Shown here in pieces: positions 372 through 4,915 of a DNA stretch of 5,024 bases. The translations under genes and the position numbers were made by a program. The notes below the pieces were generated by a model. The model made no database searches and was not told the DNA's origin. It saw nothing but the letters and a program-made list of their open reading frames with translations. Location of the stretch: the NCBI GenBank assembly GCA_040752395.1, contig JBFMHD010000204.1, positions 1 to 5,024 on the forward strand. The letters are read 5' to 3'. This DNA is from JBFMHD01 sp040752395 [NCBI: Candidatus Hydrogenedentota bacterium]. GTDB taxonomy: Bacteria > JBFMHD01. Each line of letters starts with the position of its first letter. Position 1 is the stretch's first letter.

Positions 372-1361
372 TTATTTAATAATAACAAAGTCTTTAATAA
401 TATTAAATGTTTCGTCGTTCATTTCAGGCACAATCTTCAATTCTTCAATCATTTCGAAATCGCTTATATTTTCCCGGTACCACACAATACCTTCAGCAAC
501 GCTTGGCTCGAGCCCGAGTTTTGCTTGTAGTTCATCAGCCGAGGCAGTATTAACATTGACCTTTTCTCTTTTTTTAGGCTCTTTAATCACGGTTTTTACG
601 GTTTCGGTTTTTGGTTGTAGTTTTATTTCTGGTTTTCCTGTATAAAGTCCTGGTTTTATCTCTTTAATTTTATCTGATATTTCTCTTTCTTGGATCTCTG
701 CTTTAGATTTCAATAGAATCTGCTTAAGTGTTTGAATCCCCTGGAATGCGAGGTCTTCACTCTGAACTCTTTCACCCCGTTTTGCGAGTTCCACAGCACG
801 GCTATATATCAGCTCAACACTTTCAATCTCTTGTGATTTTTTTAATTGAACATCAGTTATACCATCGAGTCGTTCCCTTAATTCAATAAGATTAGGTCCT
901 GCGGTAATCCTGATGGTTTCTTTTAGTGGTTCTATTTTTGTCTCTTTGATCTTTATTTCTATAATCTCTTTAAGCAGTTTACTCATCTTATCATCAGCTT
1001 CCTTATATACCTTACTATTAATTACTTCCTCAATTTGCGGGAGAGTTTTACTTAATTTTTGAGTAATTTCATTATCCGGATATTTTTGAAGTAAATATTT
1101 CTGCAAATCTTTTAATTGATTATATGTAGAATAACAAGATACCTCAGCTTCGCGTTCAGCCTGCTCTTCTCTTAATTTTTCGTTTTCTTTTTGCAGAAGC
1201 TGTTTTTCTGTCTCCAGTGTCTGAACACGTAAAAGCAGTTGAGAGATCTGTTCGGGTTCCTCTTCCTTTTCTTTTTTCAGATTCCAGCCTTTGAATTCAC
1301 ACCCACTTGATAGAGTTATAACTACAAAAAAAATCAGATTATAAAAAACAATTTTTCTCAT
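372..1361 (-). CDS. Coiled-coil lipoprotein with ComEA-like helix-hairpin-helix domain
   Basis: This encodes 329 residues. Residues 1-20 form a lipoprotein signal peptide with lipobox LSSGC, so C21 would be lipidated after signal peptidase II cleavage. Residues about 33-75 are a charged, heptad-like coiled coil. A long, mostly helical middle follows (about 77-230), then a basic, proline-containing linker (about 235-266). Residues 267-329 match a ComEA-type helix-hairpin-helix module: it opens with VNVNTASADELQ and has IVWYRE, IEELKIVPEMNDETF and a final IIKDFV helix. HhH domains usually bind DNA, but both hairpins lack the usual GIG glycines (LGLEPS and PEMND instead). DNA binding is therefore doubtful and a protein-contact role is possible. 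It starts directly after the tatC stop (TAGATG) with a strong GGGAGG site inside tatC, so it is the last gene of the operon. No specific function can be named. Confidence 0.82.
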   Translation of the reverse strand: MRKIVFYNLIFFVVITLSSGCEFKGWNLKKEKEEEPEQISQLLLRVQTLETEKQLLQKENEKLREEQAEREAEVSCYSTYNQLKDLQKYLLQKYPDNEITQKLSKTLPQIEEVINSKVYKEADDKMSKLLKEIIEIKIKETKIEPLKETIRITAGPNLIELRERLDGITDVQLKKSQEIESVELIYSRAVELAKRGERVQSEDLAFQGIQTLKQILLKSKAEIQEREISDKIKEIKPGLYTGKPEIKLQPKTETVKTVIKEPKKREKVNVNTASADELQAKLGLEPSVAEGIVWYRENISDFEMIEELKIVPEMNDETFNIIKDFVIIK

Positions 1362-2087
1362 CTATTCTTTCCTCCCGTGATATACTAATCTTGCTAAAAA
1401 TATACCTAAAAGATACAGAAAAATCAAAGGAATGGCAAGAAAAATTTGACTTATAATATCAGGCGGTGTGAGTACCGCAGCAATAATAAATATAAGAACA
1501 ATAGCATAGCGAAATTTATTTAAAAGTTGTTTATAGGTAACAACCCCCATTTTTGCTAAAAAAAATAATACCCATGGTAATTCAAACCCCAATCCGAAGG
1601 CAAGAAAGAGCTTTAAACTGAAATCCGTATAAAATTTGTATGACCAGTTTGGTACAAGAAAATTTCTATGCTCTTTTAGAAAAAAATTAATAACAAAAGG
1701 AAGAACGTATTTAAATGAGAAGATTACACCTGTATAGAACATTACAATCATACCGATCAAACAAGGTAAAACAACTTTCTTCTCGCGTTTATATAATCCA
1801 GCTGCTATAAACTGCCATATTTCATAAAGCCAGTGCGGACAGGATATAATCAATGCGGTGTAAAGACAAATTTTAAAATTATATAAAAATGCTTCTGCAG
1901 GCGATAATGATACTAAGTTCAAGCCAAATGTTGTAAGCGGATAAAATATTATTTTTAACAATTGTTCTCTAAAAAAAGAATATAAAAGAATAAAAACTAT
2001 TAACAAAACAACGAGTATTTTTAAAATTCGTGTCCGTAATTCCTCGAGATGTCCAAGAAATGACATCTCTTTTAGTTCCTGATTCAT
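1362..2087 (-). CDS. tatC: Sec-independent (twin-arginine) protein translocase TatC
   Basis: TatC is the membrane receptor that binds twin-arginine signal peptides with TatB and recruits TatA to export folded proteins. The product is 241 residues, the usual size, with six hydrophobic segments. Family motifs appear in order: FLGHLEELRTR (residues 10-20), SPAEAFLYNFK (62-72), LYEIWQFIAAGLYKREKK (87-104), FGLGFELPW (164-172) and TPPDIISQ (207-214). Acidic residues matching those important in E. coli TatC are present (E15 or E16, E102, E169). The gene lies 6 bases after the aminotransferase stop and abuts the lipoprotein start. The annotated ATG has only a distant AGGAAA upstream. An in-frame ATG at codon 8 (2064-2066) has AGGA 10 bases before it and gives the common MSFLGHLEELR start, so the true protein may be 234 residues. 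Confidence 0.96.
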   Translation of the reverse strand: MNQELKEMSFLGHLEELRTRILKILVVLLIVFILLYSFFREQLLKIIFYPLTTFGLNLVSLSPAEAFLYNFKICLYTALIISCPHWLYEIWQFIAAGLYKREKKVVLPCLIGMIVMFYTGVIFSFKYVLPFVINFFLKEHRNFLVPNWSYKFYTDFSLKLFLAFGLGFELPWVLFFLAKMGVVTYKQLLNKFRYAIVLIFIIAAVLTPPDIISQIFLAIPLIFLYLLGIFLARLVYHGRKE

Positions 2088-2093
2088 TATTAA

Positions 2094-3287
2094 TTATACG
2101 AATTTTCCTACGGTTTCAGCTATTCTTGATACCCCTTTCTCAATCTGCTCCATAGATAATGCATACGATAATCTAATAAAATTATCGTCACCAAACGGTT
2201 CCCCGGGAACAACAGCAGAAAGCGCATCAGTAAGAAAGACCTCAGCTATATCATACGAATTTTTTATTACTTTATCTTTATATCTTTTACCATATAAACG
2301 AGAAACATCCGGGAATACATAGAAAGCACCCTTCGGCATATTACAGGAGATGCCATCAATAGAATTCAGCATCTCAACAATACGCTTCCTCCTTTTATCA
2401 AATGCTTCTCTCATTTTAATAACCTCATCTTCAGGAGCTGAAAAAGCAGCGAGCGATGCGTATTGAGTAATAGAATTAGGATTAGAGGTTGATTGGTCCT
2501 GGAGTTCTATAACTTTTTTCATTATTTCAAGCGGCCCGGCAGCATACCCCATCCTCCATCCTGTCATTGAATGACTTTTAGATAGACCATTAACCGTAAT
2601 AGTCAATCTTTTAATCTCTTCAGAAAAAGTCCCGATACTATAATGTTTTTCGTTGTCATAAATAAGTTTTTCATAAACCTCATCTGAGATAACAACAATG
2701 TCGTTTTCACAAGCAACTTTTGCTACTATTTCAAGTGATGTTTTATTAAGAACAGCGCCTGTGGGATTACAGGGACTATTTAAAATTATGCCCCTTGTTT
2801 TAGGGGTTATTAGTTTTCTTAATTCTTTTTCTTCAATCTGAAAATCATTTTCTGCACTTGTCCTGAGATATACAGGCGTAGCACCGGAAATCTCAACCTG
2901 CGCAGGATAAGTTACCCAATATGGCAGCGGGATAATAACTTCATCACCATAATCAAATAGAACAAGTATTACATTAAAAAGCGAATGTTTGGCTCCGCAG
3001 GATACAACAACCTGTTCAGGTTTATATTCAAGCCCATTATCTTTTAATAATTTTTTACATATAGCTTGTTTTAGTTCCGGGATACCTGAAGAAGGTGTAT
3101 ATTTAGTTTTTCCTTCCTTTAATGCTTTATTAGCAGCTTCTTTAATAAACTCCGGGGTATCAAAATCAGGTTCACCCGCACCAAATCCTACGACATCTAC
3201 GCCTCTGGCTTTTAGTTCTTTAGCTTTAGCTGTGATAGCAAGTGTTGCAGACGGCTTTAATACATCTGTTCTCTTTGAAAGCTTCAT
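2094..3287 (-). CDS. aspC: Class I PLP-dependent aminotransferase, aspartate aminotransferase Ib type
   Basis: A full-length 397-residue fold-type I aminotransferase, probably converting aspartate and 2-oxoglutarate to oxaloacetate and glutamate in the cytoplasm. Signature parts are visible: KPSAT (residues 11-15), GAGEPDFDTP (36-45), KYTPSSGIPEL (62-72), W124 that would stack on PLP, NPTG (N174), SDEVYE (D202), the Schiff-base lysine K237 in GLSKSHSMTGWR, R245, and the substrate carboxylate arginine R372 in FIRLSYA. The pattern fits the Thermus/Bacillus Ib group; K100 in CGAKHSLFN lines up with the Thermus lysine that reads the distal carboxylate. Some members of this group also act on prephenate, so a role in tyrosine/phenylalanine synthesis is possible. 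It has an excellent AGGAGGT site, supplied by a repeat element upstream. It sits between tatA and tatC with no obvious functional link to them. Confidence 0.93.
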   Translation of the reverse strand: MKLSKRTDVLKPSATLAITAKAKELKARGVDVVGFGAGEPDFDTPEFIKEAANKALKEGKTKYTPSSGIPELKQAICKKLLKDNGLEYKPEQVVVSCGAKHSLFNVILVLFDYGDEVIIPLPYWVTYPAQVEISGATPVYLRTSAENDFQIEEKELRKLITPKTRGIILNSPCNPTGAVLNKTSLEIVAKVACENDIVVISDEVYEKLIYDNEKHYSIGTFSEEIKRLTITVNGLSKSHSMTGWRMGYAAGPLEIMKKVIELQDQSTSNPNSITQYASLAAFSAPEDEVIKMREAFDKRRKRIVEMLNSIDGISCNMPKGAFYVFPDVSRLYGKRYKDKVIKNSYDIAEVFLTDALSAVVPGEPFGDDNFIRLSYALSMEQIEKGVSRIAETVGKFV

Positions 3288-3291
3288 TAGT

Positions 3292-3298
3292 ACCTCCT
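3292..3298 (-). promoter_or_regulatory. Ribosome binding site of the aminotransferase gene
   Basis: On the minus strand this reads AGGAGGT, with ACTA between it and the ATG. It is the strongest Shine-Dalgarno site in the window, and most of it lies within the conserved end of the upstream repeat element. The same CAGAGGAG word serves the PilZ-like gene. Confidence 0.85.
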
Positions 3299-3403
3299 CT
3301 GAAAAACATTGTAACTATAATAATATCAAGTAGAAGCAAGAAATAACGGCATCCTGTATCTTGCCTCTTGCTTCTTTCGTTATCTTGCTTCTACATATCA
3401 TCT
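3294..3403 (-). repeat. Leader repeat element, copy 1 (upstream of the aminotransferase gene)
   Basis: The end next to the gene (3294-3324) matches 4179-4209 at 28 of 31 bases. The far end (3393-3403, acatatcatct on the plus strand) matches 4276-4286 exactly. The 68-base core between them is unlike the core of copy 2 and forms a long inverted repeat. In the gene's reading direction the order is far end, core, conserved leader, Shine-Dalgarno, start codon. The element fills most of the gap between tatA and the aminotransferase gene. It may be a transcribed leader, a promoter region or a small non-autonomous repeat; the sequence alone does not decide. Confidence 0.7.
3331..3393. repeat. Long inverted repeat in the core of leader element 1
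   Basis: The left arm 3331-3348 (tagaagcaagaaataacg) is complementary to the right arm 3378-3393 (cgttatcttgcttcta), with one 2-base bulge. The 29-base loop carries a further tcttgcttc (3366-3374), so alternative pairings exist. No T-run follows on the minus strand, so it is not a standard intrinsic terminator for tatA. It could form a strong RNA hairpin upstream of the aminotransferase gene. Confidence 0.8.
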
Positions 3404-3418
3404 CCTATAATGATTTAT

Positions 3419-3595
3419 CTACATTTTTTTATTATCTTCTTTTTCTGTTTGGTTTTTATCTTCTTTTAAGCCCTTTTTAAACTCAGTAATACTTCGGCCA
3501 ATCTGGCGCATAAGATCAGGTATGCGTTTAGCGCCAAATAATAATATAACAATCACTATAATCAGTAAAACTTCATCAAAACGAATATTACCCAT
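3419..3595 (-). CDS. tatA: Twin-arginine translocase subunit TatA
   Basis: A short gene of 58 residues, starting ATG at 3593-3595 and ending TAG at 3419-3421. TatA oligomers form the passage for folded proteins at the inner membrane. The layout is classic: a short N-terminal segment with E8, one hydrophobic helix (about 9-20), the F20-G21 hinge in LLFGAKRIPDL, an amphipathic helix (about 24-44) with GRSITEFKKGLKED, and a short charged tail rich in K, E and D. The start overlaps the upstream tatB-like stop by 8 bases (ATGGGTAA), with GGAG 5 bases before the ATG, so it is translationally coupled. Arginine replaces lysine in the usual KKLP, giving KRIP. With the TatB-like gene and tatC it completes a three-part Tat system. 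Confidence 0.93.
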   Translation of the reverse strand: MGNIRFDEVLLIIVIVILLFGAKRIPDLMRQIGRSITEFKKGLKEDKNQTEKEDNKKM

Positions 3596-3791
3596 AATTC
3601 TCCGAGTCCTTCTTTATTTCTTCTTCAAATTCAGAAGCCTCAATCTCGTCCTGAAACTCGCGTGCACCTCGTTGAAATTCTTTTAATCCTTTGCCTAAGG
3701 AACGTGCCAATTCAGGTAATTTTTTAGGGCCTATAAATATAAGCGCTACAATAAATATGACAATAATCTCTCCAAAATTAAGGTTAAACAT
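3588..3791 (-). CDS. tatB: Twin-arginine translocase TatA/TatB family subunit, TatB-like
   Basis: This encodes 67 residues: one N-terminal transmembrane helix (about 7-20), a GP hinge, then a long amphipathic helix with GPKKLPELARSLGKGLKEF and an acidic tail. The opening MFNLNFGE, with E8, and the hinge IGP rather than FGP are TatB traits. TatB partners TatC in binding the signal peptide. The neighbouring 58-residue protein has the TatA-type FG hinge, so the pair looks like one TatB and one TatA rather than two TatA. However, the protein is much shorter than E. coli TatB, and many lineages have bifunctional TatA-like proteins, so the subtype is less sure than the family. Its ATG overlaps the PilZ-like stop by 8 bases (ATGTTTAA), with AGGAAG about 8 bases upstream of the start. 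Confidence 0.85.
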   Translation of the reverse strand: MFNLNFGEIIVIFIVALIFIGPKKLPELARSLGKGLKEFQRGAREFQDEIEASEFEEEIKKDSENYG

Positions 3792-4173
3792 TTTCTTCTT
3801 CCTCTCTGGAAGAATAAAATCTTATATATGTCTGTAGATTCAATTCATCCAAGTCAGAAATCTGTATAAATCTCACAGCTATAAAATAATCTTTAGTAGG
3901 GTCTTTTCTGCTTTTTTCGACCCTTAATATTTTGCAGGTAATATCTGAAAACTCTACACCTTCTATCTGAAACATAACTTTAAATGCATCTCTCATAAGC
4001 ATCTGCAAAGTAGCACAATTCAAGACAGGGTCGCTTGACCGAAGCCCCATACCATGAACACTCAAGCCAACAGCAACCCCTTCAAAACTGAATTGTTCCT
4101 GATGAACGGCAGTCAACCTGACAAGAACTTCCCTTTTTAATCGTTCAGCTGATCTTATACCGGGCTCTTCCAT
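3784..4173 (-). CDS. PilZ-like domain protein
   Basis: A single-domain protein of 129 residues with no signal peptide or membrane segment, so probably cytoplasmic. PilZ domains bind cyclic di-GMP through an N-terminal RxxxR and a (D/N)xSxxG motif. Here R7-S-A-E-R11 fits RxxxR, and VGLSVHGMGL (residues 35-44) sits where DxSxxGMxL is expected, with G36 replacing the acidic or Asn residue. The later strands resemble the family: ITCKILRVE, then YFIAVRFIQISDLDELNLQTYI near the C-terminus. The fold call is by pattern only, and loss of the Asp/Asn could mean weak or no c-di-GMP binding. It is the first gene of the minus-strand operon and overlaps tatB by 8 bases, so its level is tied to that of the translocase. 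The start has GGAG 5 bases upstream, from leader element 2. Confidence 0.68.
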   Translation of the reverse strand: MEEPGIRSAERLKREVLVRLTAVHQEQFSFEGVAVGLSVHGMGLRSSDPVLNCATLQMLMRDAFKVMFQIEGVEFSDITCKILRVEKSRKDPTKDYFIAVRFIQISDLDELNLQTYIRFYSSREEEENV

Positions 4174-4178
4174 TGTAT

Positions 4179-4185
4179 CTCCTCT
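4179..4185 (-). promoter_or_regulatory. Ribosome binding site of the PilZ-like gene
   Basis: The minus strand reads AGAGGAG, then ATACA, then ATG. This supports the start at 4171-4173. The site lies inside the conserved end of leader element 2, as in the aminotransferase leader. Confidence 0.8.
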
Positions 4186-4210
4186 GAAAAACGCTGTAAC
4201 TCTAATAATT

Positions 4211-4274
4211 CGGGCTACAGACTACGGGCTACGGACTACAGCCGGCTGGAGCCTGAAGCCCGGAGCCTGAAGCC
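4211..4274. repeat. GC-rich iterated 14-mers in the core of leader element 2
   Basis: There are two tandem pairs: cgggctacagacta at 4211-4224 and cgggctacggacta at 4225-4238 (one mismatch), then ggagcctgaagcc at 4248-4260 and 4262-4274 (identical, period 14). A perfect 10-base palindrome, CAGCCGGCTG (4239-4248), lies at the joint. CGGGCT at 4225-4230 can also pair with AGCCCG at 4257-4262. The stretch is much richer in G and C than its surroundings, which suggests it was inserted or expanded separately. Confidence 0.85.
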
Positions 4275-4308
4275 AACATATCATCTTTAGTTTTTCATAT
4301 ATTGTGTA

Positions 4309-4325
4309 GAGCGCAAACCGCGCTC
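4309..4325. other. Short GC-rich hairpin in the divergent intergenic region
   Basis: GAGCGC (4309-4314), loop AAACC, GCGCTC (4320-4325): a perfect 6-base stem. Neither strand has a T-run after it, so it is unlikely to be a terminator. If the predicted minus-strand promoter is used, it lies in the leader of the PilZ-tat transcript. It could instead be an operator. Confidence 0.5.
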
Positions 4326-4375
4326 ATGACGACTCCTATGAAAAAAAGCAAGAGATGAAGAAGCAAGACTTGTCT

Positions 4376-4405
4376 AATAGAATCTTCTATAGCATAAATT
4401 GTCAA
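4376..4405 (-). promoter_or_regulatory. Candidate sigma70-type promoter for the PilZ-tat operon
   Basis: On the minus strand a perfect -35 TTGACA (4405-4400) is followed, after 18 bases, by TCTATT (4381-4376), a 4 of 6 match to the -10 box. Transcription would start near 4369, giving a leader of about 195 bases that includes the hairpin at 4309-4325 and leader element 2. The -35 box is convincing and the -10 box is weak. Confidence 0.5.
4377..4390. promoter_or_regulatory. Palindrome ATAGAA-TC-TTCTAT, possible operator
   Basis: A perfect inverted repeat with 6-base arms and a 2-base centre covers the -10 box and part of the spacer of the candidate minus-strand promoter. That is a typical place for a repressor site. 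No regulator is encoded beside it, and a 14-base AT-rich palindrome can arise by chance. Confidence 0.35.
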
Positions 4406-4413
4406 GATTTATT

Positions 4414-4443
4414 TTGACATAGTTAATAGTTAATGGATTAAAT
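4414..4443 (+). promoter_or_regulatory. Candidate sigma70-type promoter for rlmH
   Basis: A perfect -35 TTGACA (4414-4419) is followed by an 18-base spacer holding the tandem word TAGTTAA twice (4420-4433), then TTAAAT (4438-4443), 4 of 6 to the -10 box. Transcription would begin at about 4450, at the rlmH ATG, so the mRNA would be nearly leaderless. This agrees with the lack of a good ribosome site. Confidence 0.5.
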
Positions 4444-4450
4444 ATTGTAT

Positions 4451-4915
4451 ATGAAAGCAGAGATATTTATTCTTTGTATTGGAAAATGTAAAAAATCTGA
4501 ATATAATCCTGTTATTGAGATGTATCTAAACAGGATAAACAGATTCATAAAAATAACTCAGTTTGAAATCCCTGCTATGAATTATAAAGATATTAATCAG
4601 ACTATAAAAAAAGAATCTGAGATGCTTATTGAAAAATCGAAAGATATGTTCAGAATACTTTTAGATAGTAACGGCAAAAAAATTGATACCGAATCTTTTG
4701 TAAGAATACTTAATAAAATATTTTTTACAGGGTCGAAACGGGTCTGTTTTATTATTGGCGGGCCATACGGGGTCTCTGATTATTTAAAAAGTCTTGTGGA
4801 TTTAACTATATCTTTATCCTGTTTAAATCTCCCATATCTTCTCGCAAGAACTATTCTATTTGAACAAATCTACAGGTCTTTAACAATTATTAAAAACGTA
4901 CCGTACCAGCATTAG
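4451..4915 (+). CDS. rlmH: 23S rRNA pseudouridine-1915 N3-methyltransferase RlmH
   Basis: RlmH is a small SPOUT-class SAM enzyme that methylates pseudouridine 1915 in helix 69 of 23S rRNA on assembled ribosomes. From ATG 4451 the protein is 154 residues, the usual family length. Seen in order: a beta-strand start MKAEIFILCIGKCKKSEY, YLNRINRF (25-32), LDSNGKKIDTESF (71-83), the SAM-loop motif FIIGGPYG (100-107), ISLSCLNLP (120-128), LARTILFEQIYR (131-142) and IIKNVPYQH at the end. A TTG two codons upstream (4445) could also start it, but the ATG gives the normal N-terminus. Two usually conserved histidines are changed: PH before LAR is PY (Y129), and the terminal YH(K/R) is YQH. There is only a weak GGA 13 bases before the ATG. 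The gene is transcribed away from the PilZ-tat operon and is followed by a terminator. Confidence 0.93.
   Translation: MKAEIFILCIGKCKKSEYNPVIEMYLNRINRFIKITQFEIPAMNYKDINQTIKKESEMLIEKSKDMFRILLDSNGKKIDTESFVRILNKIFFTGSKRVCFIIGGPYGVSDYLKSLVDLTISLSCLNLPYLLARTILFEQIYRSLTIIKNVPYQH

What the first reader, a model, noticed from the sequence alone, without database searches (positions are those of the whole stretch)
3294..4286. Two leader elements with the same ends but unrelated cores, each placed before a gene trio
Positions 3294-3324 and 4179-4209 match at 28 of 31 bases. About 67 bases further on, both copies carry the exact 11-mer acatatcatct (3393-3403, 4276-4286). Total lengths are nearly equal (110 and 108), yet the cores differ completely: one is an inverted repeat of gaagcaaga words, the other tandem GC-rich 14-mers. 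Both point the same way and end in the Shine-Dalgarno site of the next gene. This looks like a mobile or duplicated leader cassette with exchangeable or fast-evolving cores that brings its own ribosome site. A simple duplication of a promoter region with later core replacement is the plainer explanation.
Basis: partly seen in the sequence, partly recalled or inferred. Interest (0 to 1): 0.68.

Follow-up and report, generated by a model that had tools for sequence, protein, structure and literature searches.

The report
Duplicated leaders carrying different heptad hairpins
Two near-identical gene leaders each hold, at the same spot, an unrelated hairpin built of seven-base words, and similar hairpins occur between genes, in a riboswitch, in ribosomal RNA genes and around genes for the S23 protein in other uncultured bacteria.

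Summary
The leaders of pilZ-tatA-tatA and aspC-tatC-comEA (minus strand) share 28 of 31 bases near the start codon and an exact distal 11-mer, with unrelated 66-68-nt cores between. Both cores fold as hairpins and have a seven-base period. The shared ends can pair, placing each core in a stem's loop.

The source genome is not held, so copy number there is unknown. Elsewhere, seven-base repeats are enriched in four S23-bearing genomes, most clearly G104: 27 hairpins in 800 kb, 26 intergenic, plus one in a c-di-GMP-I riboswitch loop. Heptad inserts interrupt 23S rRNA in 2 of 7 genomes; S23 genes often have inverted flanks, some of heptads. Core 1 shares words with one S23 element.

Best reading: a duplicated host leader that twice received, or exchanged, an IVS-like heptad hairpin. 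A mobile cassette carrying constant ends is not supported: G104 hairpins share no such ends. Mobility and any role of S23 are inferred; local slippage is the main rival.

The parts
3288..3403 (-). Leader 1, before aspC: distal 11-mer, hairpin core 1, conserved proximal end with Shine-Dalgarno
   Evidence: folds at -26.0 kcal/mol, z -2.4
3393..3403 (-). Distal conserved 11-mer AGATGATATGT of leader 1; GATGAT (3402-3397) can pair with ATTATT (3324-3319)
3325..3392 (-). Core 1: hairpin with GAAGCAA/GAGGCAA/GATACAG-type heptads, 15 pairs in the outer stem
   Evidence: lag 7 P = 0.001, lag 14 P = 0.019; local score 21 with the arm of an S23 element of G242 and with a solo hairpin of G242, shuffled maxima 15 and 13
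3294..3324 (-). Conserved proximal end of leader 1
   Evidence: 28 of 31 with 4179-4209
3293..3300 (-). Shine-Dalgarno-like AGAGGAGG before aspC
4174..4286 (-). Leader 2, before pilZ
   Evidence: folds at -39.4 kcal/mol, z -2.4
4276..4286 (-). Distal conserved 11-mer of leader 2; GATGAT (4285-4280) can pair with ATTATT (4209-4204)
4210..4275 (-). Core 2: hairpin whose arms are heptad arrays of the types GGCTYCR and GTAGYCY, with a recurring mismatch; 65% GC
4179..4209 (-). Conserved proximal end of leader 2, including Shine-Dalgarno-like AGAGGAG (4185-4179)
2094..3287 (-). aspC-like class I aminotransferase, first gene of trio 1
   Evidence: PF00155, E 4.8e-72
1362..2087 (-). tatC
   Evidence: PF00902, E 9.1e-65
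372..1361 (-). Helix-hairpin-helix (ComEA-like) protein with an apparent lipoprotein signal
   Evidence: PF12836, E 1.9e-15; the signal is read by eye
3784..4173 (-). pilZ, first gene of trio 2
   Evidence: PF07238, E 1.2e-5
3588..3791 (-). tatA-type gene
   Evidence: PF02416
3419..3595 (-). second tatA-type gene; leader 1 begins 15 bases after its stop
   Evidence: PF02416

Best explanation
The two elements are copies of one short host leader (a weak 6-bp stem GATGAT/ATTATT followed by the Shine-Dalgarno region) duplicated within the locus. In each copy the loop of that stem is filled by a different member of a dispersed class of heptad-word hairpins. These would be ORF-less relatives of the hairpin elements that carry the S23 four-helix-bundle gene and that appear in 23S rRNA as intervening sequences (IVS). 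They are tolerated because a hairpin at the tip of an existing stem leaves the surrounding RNA fold and the ribosome site intact; after transcription they could offer an RNase III-type processing site. Shown: duplicated ends; unrelated period-7 cores, predicted to fold as hairpins, at the same point; similar hairpins in a riboswitch, in rRNA genes, in operon spacers and beside S23 genes of other genomes. Inferred: that the window cores belong to that class, that they arrived by insertion or exchange after the duplication, that S23 helps to spread them, and RNase III processing.
For: Both cores have a 7-base period and no other significant one except the 14-base harmonic; ends alike, cores unrelated; core 2 is 65% GC in a 34% GC window. 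With the cores left out both leaders fold into a small stem whose loop is the core's site. Lag-7 runs with an inverted partner in G104: 46 of 145, against 0 at lags 4-6 and 8-13 (lag 14, a harmonic, 41 of 100). 26 of 27 G104 hairpins are intergenic although 90.4% of that DNA is in ORFs, and 19 of 27 lie within 120 nt of both the preceding and the following co-directional gene. Same scaffold with and without a heptad hairpin: two c-di-GMP-I riboswitches in G104, the second with 72 nt where the model has 4. Same flank, different words: paralogous gene ends in G104. Heptad inserts inside 23S rRNA in 2 of 7 genomes. S23 flanks: inverted-repeat score of 20 or more in 13 of 26, against 4 of 300 control ORFs. 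Core 1 shares words with an S23 element and a solo hairpin of G242. A published Coxiella IVS has tandem heptamers before its S23 ORF (PMC4990558, passages).
Against: The source genome is not held and no close relative was found (AspC best 58%); copy number in the source is unknown and its phylum unsettled, so the other genomes are analogues. The hairpin detector did not call either window core, and core 1's inverted-repeat score lies within the range of other window stretches. Apart from G104 the enrichment is weaker: G004 39 runs at lag 7 but 29 at lag 12, none with a partner; G242 5 with partner at lag 7 and 2 at lag 8; G054 4 at lag 7 and 1 each at lags 6, 8 and 13. S23 flanks are repetitive at other lags too (9 of 26 against 11 of 300; lag 7: 15 of 26 against 33 of 300). 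None of 21 other scored riboswitch spans has a heptad insert. The GTAGYCY pattern was no commoner than its reversed control. The pairing of the conserved ends rests on two sequences without covariation. No insertion event was observed.
Confidence: 0.5

Rival explanations
1. A plain duplication of a promoter/leader region whose cores then diverged or were replaced by ordinary local processes (slippage, template switching), with no dispersed element involved.
For: Only two copies are known (source genome not held). Seven-base arrays whose unit changes along the array exist (L142, read by eye), so local slippage can change words.
Against: Two cores of nearly equal length, both period-7 and predicted hairpins, share no residual similarity; core 2 differs strongly in GC content; core 1 words recur in another genome's S23 element.
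Confidence: 0.28
2. A regulatory leader family: the conserved ends are a regulator or RNA-protein site shared by the two operons that hold the Tat genes, and the variable stem is only a spacer.
For: Conserved ends in front of two gene sets that split the Tat genes between them; TAACTGA heptamers before start codons have been proposed as regulatory sites (PMC4679880, abstract and passages).
Against: No Rfam match in the leaders; promoter-like sites in 3250-4460 are at chance level (3 found, 3.5 expected); period-7 cores are not predicted by this model.
Confidence: 0.14
3. A mobile cassette whose constant ends, including the ribosome site, move together with exchangeable cores.
For: Same ends, same orientation, abrupt end of similarity.
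Against: Flanks of 27 analogous hairpins in G104 are not shared beyond one paralogy case; no relative of the proximal end in 384 Omnitrophota genomes or, as an exact pattern, in IMG/VR; the ends pair with each other over only 6 weak pairs.
Confidence: 0.06

Closest known systems
23S rRNA intervening sequences (IVS) with S23/IVP proteins (PF05635)
   Same: Hairpin that extends an RNA stem (inferred here); in other genomes some S23 genes lie between inverted heptad arms and heptad inserts occur inside 23S rRNA genes; tandem heptamers are reported in the Coxiella IVS, and a mobile origin of IVS has been proposed in papers cited there (PMC4990558, passages)
   Different: The window elements lie in mRNA leaders, have no S23 ORF, and two unrelated hairpins share one scaffold
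Heptanucleotide repeats of bacteria: STRR of cyanobacteria (recalled), TAACTGA of Beggiatoaceae (PMC4679880, abstract and passages), Geobacter metallireducens heptamers (PMC2700814, passages)
   Same: Seven-base units in intergenic regions, in Beggiatoaceae mostly just before start codons
   Different: TAACTGA forms direct arrays of one word and is not predicted to fold; here the arrays are hairpin arms, with several words per genome in G104
REP/REPIN palindromes (PMC3733652, PMC3116915; listing only)
   Same: Short dispersed intergenic hairpins
   Different: REP families share a consensus and have no heptad periodicity (recalled); no similarity joins core 1 and core 2

Membership tests
23S rRNA IVS (S23-type) | Located within a 23S rRNA helix | tested here: not met
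   The window elements lie between protein genes and the window has no rRNA match
23S rRNA IVS (S23-type) | Hairpin with complementary termini extending an existing RNA stem | tested here: inconclusive
   Cores fold as hairpins and the ends pair at their base, but on two sequences without covariation
23S rRNA IVS (S23-type) | Removed by RNase III | not testable with these tools
   Needs RNA work
Dispersed heptad hairpins (class described here) | 7-base periodicity | tested here: met
Dispersed heptad hairpins (class described here) | Called as a lag-7 run with an inverted partner by the detector used on other genomes | tested here: not met
   Lag-7 runs were found in both cores but no partner was called; a direct half-against-half comparison does find the arms
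Dispersed heptad hairpins (class described here) | Many copies with several words in the same genome | not testable with these tools
   Source genome not held
STRR-type heptanucleotide repeats | Direct array of one heptamer | tested here: not met
   Each core has inverted arms with varying heptads
Known riboswitch leader | Rfam match | tested here: not met
   Only one weak match, elsewhere in the window (E 0.99)

The most novel reading that the evidence does not exclude
Heptad-word hairpins are a mobile element class that targets the loops of existing RNA stems (leaders, riboswitches, rRNA, operon spacers); the S23/IVP four-helix-bundle protein belongs to the autonomous form; and the window shows two such elements occupying the same loop of a duplicated leader.
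Probability: 0.3. Interest if true: 0.85.

Novelty: new variant of a known kind. Interest (0 to 1): 0.6.

Why it matters
The function and origin of 23S rRNA intervening sequences are described as unclear, and the S23 proteins as of unknown function (PMC4990558, passages). If IVS are only the rRNA-borne part of a genome-wide class of heptad hairpins, with S23 genes carried between heptad arms outside rRNA, the question becomes testable by comparing close strains. It could also explain how some riboswitches and leaders acquire large variable stems. A duplicated leader with two unrelated hairpins at one point would be a natural experiment for this.

Tried and rejected
Source genome and kin: the window's genome is not held. 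A genome-contig scan with AspC, by exact peptide patterns, gave at most 54%; the AspC tree leaves the window unplaced. AspC reached 58% in 149 Elusimicrobiota genomes, TatC 42% in 237 Omnitrophota genomes, and the ComEA-like protein matched 14 of 149 Elusimicrobiota genomes only in its C-terminal HHH region. The phylum stays open. Phylum names of G genomes are taken from the titles of the loci that led to them.

Leader ends elsewhere: 0 in IMG/VR, exact pattern of 20 fixed bases; 0 of 384 Omnitrophota genomes with up to 3 mismatches; the latter pattern was not tried in other phyla.

Word search: exact GTAGYCY triplets matched 2 of 149 and 5 of 237 genomes, but the reversed control pattern matched 3 of 149 and 3 of 237, so this pattern alone shows no excess.

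Shared flank in G104 (28 of 31, L254): rejected as an element end because it is the C-terminal coding end of paralogous genes. One exact 15-mer between two other flanks was within the range of shuffled flanks (maximum score 16).

Heptad inserts as a common feature of long c-di-GMP-I riboswitches: rejected. I chose 20 stretches among the longer matches and fetched them. My pattern found the motif in 17 of 20, 22 spans; one span was too short to score; the other 21 reached at most 12 of 21 at lag 7. L307, L313 and L316 gave no motif. Spans were cut by a simple pattern and are approximate. The G104 insert itself was found by eye and Rfam; the detector had not listed it.

S23 and heptads: the 16 genomes were chosen, not sampled; 44 places matched, 30 got loci, 4 with short flanks were dropped, leaving 26. 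For one of these (L215) the contig start shifted the flank by 69 bases. The 300 control ORFs come from G104, G004 and G242 only, so they are not matched to all genomes. Several S23 loci show no strong inverted flank (9 of 26 below z 4), and some strong ones are not clearly heptad. One S23-free genome (G093) had 7 lag-7 runs in 287 kb, against 38, 39, 26 and 145 in 243, 273, 198 and 800 kb of the four S23-bearing ones: one against four, partial sequence.

Coding reading of core 1: a 28-codon frame with ATG in the 11-mer exists; not pursued.

Literature: ten searches listed nothing that I recognised as dispersed heptad hairpins tied to S23; only listed titles and abstract starts were seen, apart from passages of PMC2700814, PMC4679880 and PMC4990558. 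A word search inside PMC11270868 on rRNA insertions gave no hits. Subscription papers are not held.

Not tested: whether the S23 genes sit beside reverse transcriptases (PF05635 occurs in the text of a paper on diversity-generating retroelements, PMC10053308, seen in listing only).

Full report
What is there. The window holds two minus-strand gene trios: pilZ-tatA-tatA (4173-3419) and aspC-tatC-comEA-like (3287-372), with a divergent SPOUT-methyltransferase (rlmH-like) gene on the plus strand. In front of each trio stands a leader of about 110 bases. Near the start codons the two leaders agree at 28 of 31 bases (36 of 43 when extended towards the ATG), and both begin with the exact 11-mer AGATGATATGT; similarity stops outside. 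In 40 Markov simulations of the window the best 31-base match did not exceed 24.

The cores. Between these ends lie 68 and 66 bases with no residual similarity (local score 5, shuffled mean 5.5). They are alike in kind. Each is predicted to fold as a hairpin, and each shows a 7-base period and no other apart from the 14-base harmonic (lag 7: core 1 P = 0.001, core 2 0 of 1000 simulations). Core 2 has arms built of heptads of the types GGCTYCR and GTAGYCY that pair with a recurring mismatch, and is 65% GC in a 34% GC window. Core 1 has GAAGCAA/GAGGCAA/GATACAG-type words and 15 pairs in its outer stem. As an inverted repeat core 2 stands out from 666 other stretches of the window (16 against a maximum of 12), core 1 does not (11); both leaders fold at z = -2.4. 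The conserved ends contain GATGAT and ATTATT, which pair at the base of each hairpin; with the core left out, both leaders fold into a weak stem whose loop is the place where the core sits. This stem is a prediction from two sequences without covariation.

Source. No genome is held for the window, and no close relative was found with AspC, TatC or the ComEA-like protein. I therefore asked whether such cores exist elsewhere.

A class of heptad hairpins. In 800 kb of an Elusimicrobiota genome (G104) runs of 7-base periodicity are enriched: 145 at lag 7 against 6-48 at the other lags from 4 to 13; 46 of the 145 have an inverted partner within 250 nt, against none at lags 4-6 and 8-13 (lag 14, the harmonic, 100 and 41). 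They merge into 27 hairpins, by eye of at least six word types (TAGCGTA, TGCAAAA, CAGACTA, CAGTGACC and others). Twenty-six of the 27 midpoints lie outside ORFs of 100 codons or more although 90.4% of the DNA is in such ORFs, and 19 of 27 lie within 120 nt of both the preceding and the following co-directional gene. Elsewhere the signal is weaker: G242 (Omnitrophota) 26 lag-7 runs, 5 with partner, in 198 kb (lag 8: 8 and 2); G054 38 and 4 in 243 kb (lags 6, 8 and 13: one partner each); G004 39 and 0 in 273 kb (lag 12: 29 runs). G093, without S23, had 7 and 0 in 287 kb, and 80 AspC loci from many phyla 24 and 0 in 819 kb, no more than at lags 6 and 9.

Same scaffold, different tip. In G104 two c-di-GMP-I riboswitches start 286 bases apart, both above Rfam's gathering score; the second has 72 nt where the model has 4, a heptad hairpin in the loop of a peripheral stem. 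Two paralogous genes there end alike (28 of 31) and are followed at once by heptad hairpins of different words. These are close analogues of the window's two leaders. Riboswitch insertion is rare: G104 has five c-di-GMP-I matches, of which I saw this one with an insert, and 0 of 21 scored spans in other genomes of the phylum had one.

Link to IVS and S23. Inserts of roughly 100-170 nt with heptad runs interrupt 23S rRNA genes in 2 of 7 genomes with a 23S match (G116, G183; 12 searched). S23/IVP genes (PF05635) were over the cut-off in 12 of 16 chosen genomes and in none of 14 control genomes. Their 300-nt flanks score 20 or more as inverted repeats in 13 of 26 loci, against 4 of 300 control ORFs (z of 4 or more: 17 of 26 against 10 of 300). 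The flanks are repetitive at lag 7 (15 of 26 against 33 of 300) but also at other lags (9 of 26 against 11 of 300). Of the five S23 genes of G104 that I looked at, three are flanked by words of its solo hairpins (TGCAAAA, TATAAGC, CAGTGACC), and an S23 gene of G242 by GAAGCAAGA words. Core 1 of the window scores 21 with that arm and with a solo hairpin of G242, shuffled maxima being 15 and 13; core 2 does not match them. In print, the Coxiella IVS has tandem GACAGAT heptamers before its S23 ORF, with an RNase III site at the first repeat, and mobility of IVS with the help of the ORF has been suggested (PMC4990558, passages).

Interpretation. The account that covers most of this is a duplicated host leader whose stem tip holds two different IVS-like heptad hairpins. 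The constant ends would belong to the host leader, since the flanks of the hairpins in G104 are not shared. The hairpins may persist because, as RNA, they extend a stem without disturbing the ribosome site. How they spread, and whether S23 takes part, is inferred from genome position only. Slippage or template switching within a duplicated leader remains the main rival, and a regulatory leader family the next.

Novelty. Heptamer arrays, IVS and S23 are known separately, and a mobile origin of IVS has been proposed. In ten searches of the open-access library I recognised no description of dispersed multi-word heptad hairpins tied to S23 (mostly listings); subscription papers are not covered. 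I rate the window as a new variant of a known kind.

Noticed in passing
L254:2427-2581 (G104): c-di-GMP-I riboswitch with a 72-nt heptad hairpin in a peripheral loop, starting 286 bases after an uninterrupted one.
   Followed up: yes
L263:760-864 (G116); L262:997-1054 and 2160-2284 (G183): Heptad inserts inside 23S rRNA genes.
   Followed up: partly
L168:9378-9850 (G004), also L021:5660-6135: S23 gene between tatA and tatC, flanked by inverted TTAGTGR-type heptads.
   Followed up: partly
window 4343-4368: A further stretch of GCAAGA/GAAGCAAGA words upstream of leader 2, partly complementary to core 1.
   Followed up: no
window 4400-4420: Inverted repeat TGTCAA...TTGACA between the divergent rlmH-like gene and the pilZ leader, possibly divergent -35 boxes or a regulator site.
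   Followed up: no
L157:11923 and L157:14916 (G104): Two hairpins of CAGACTA words share GTACCKTAACGGCAG, apparently just after a stop codon (read by eye).
   Followed up: no
window 3401-3315, minus strand: 28-codon open frame starting in the 11-mer and running through core 1; probably chance.
   Followed up: no
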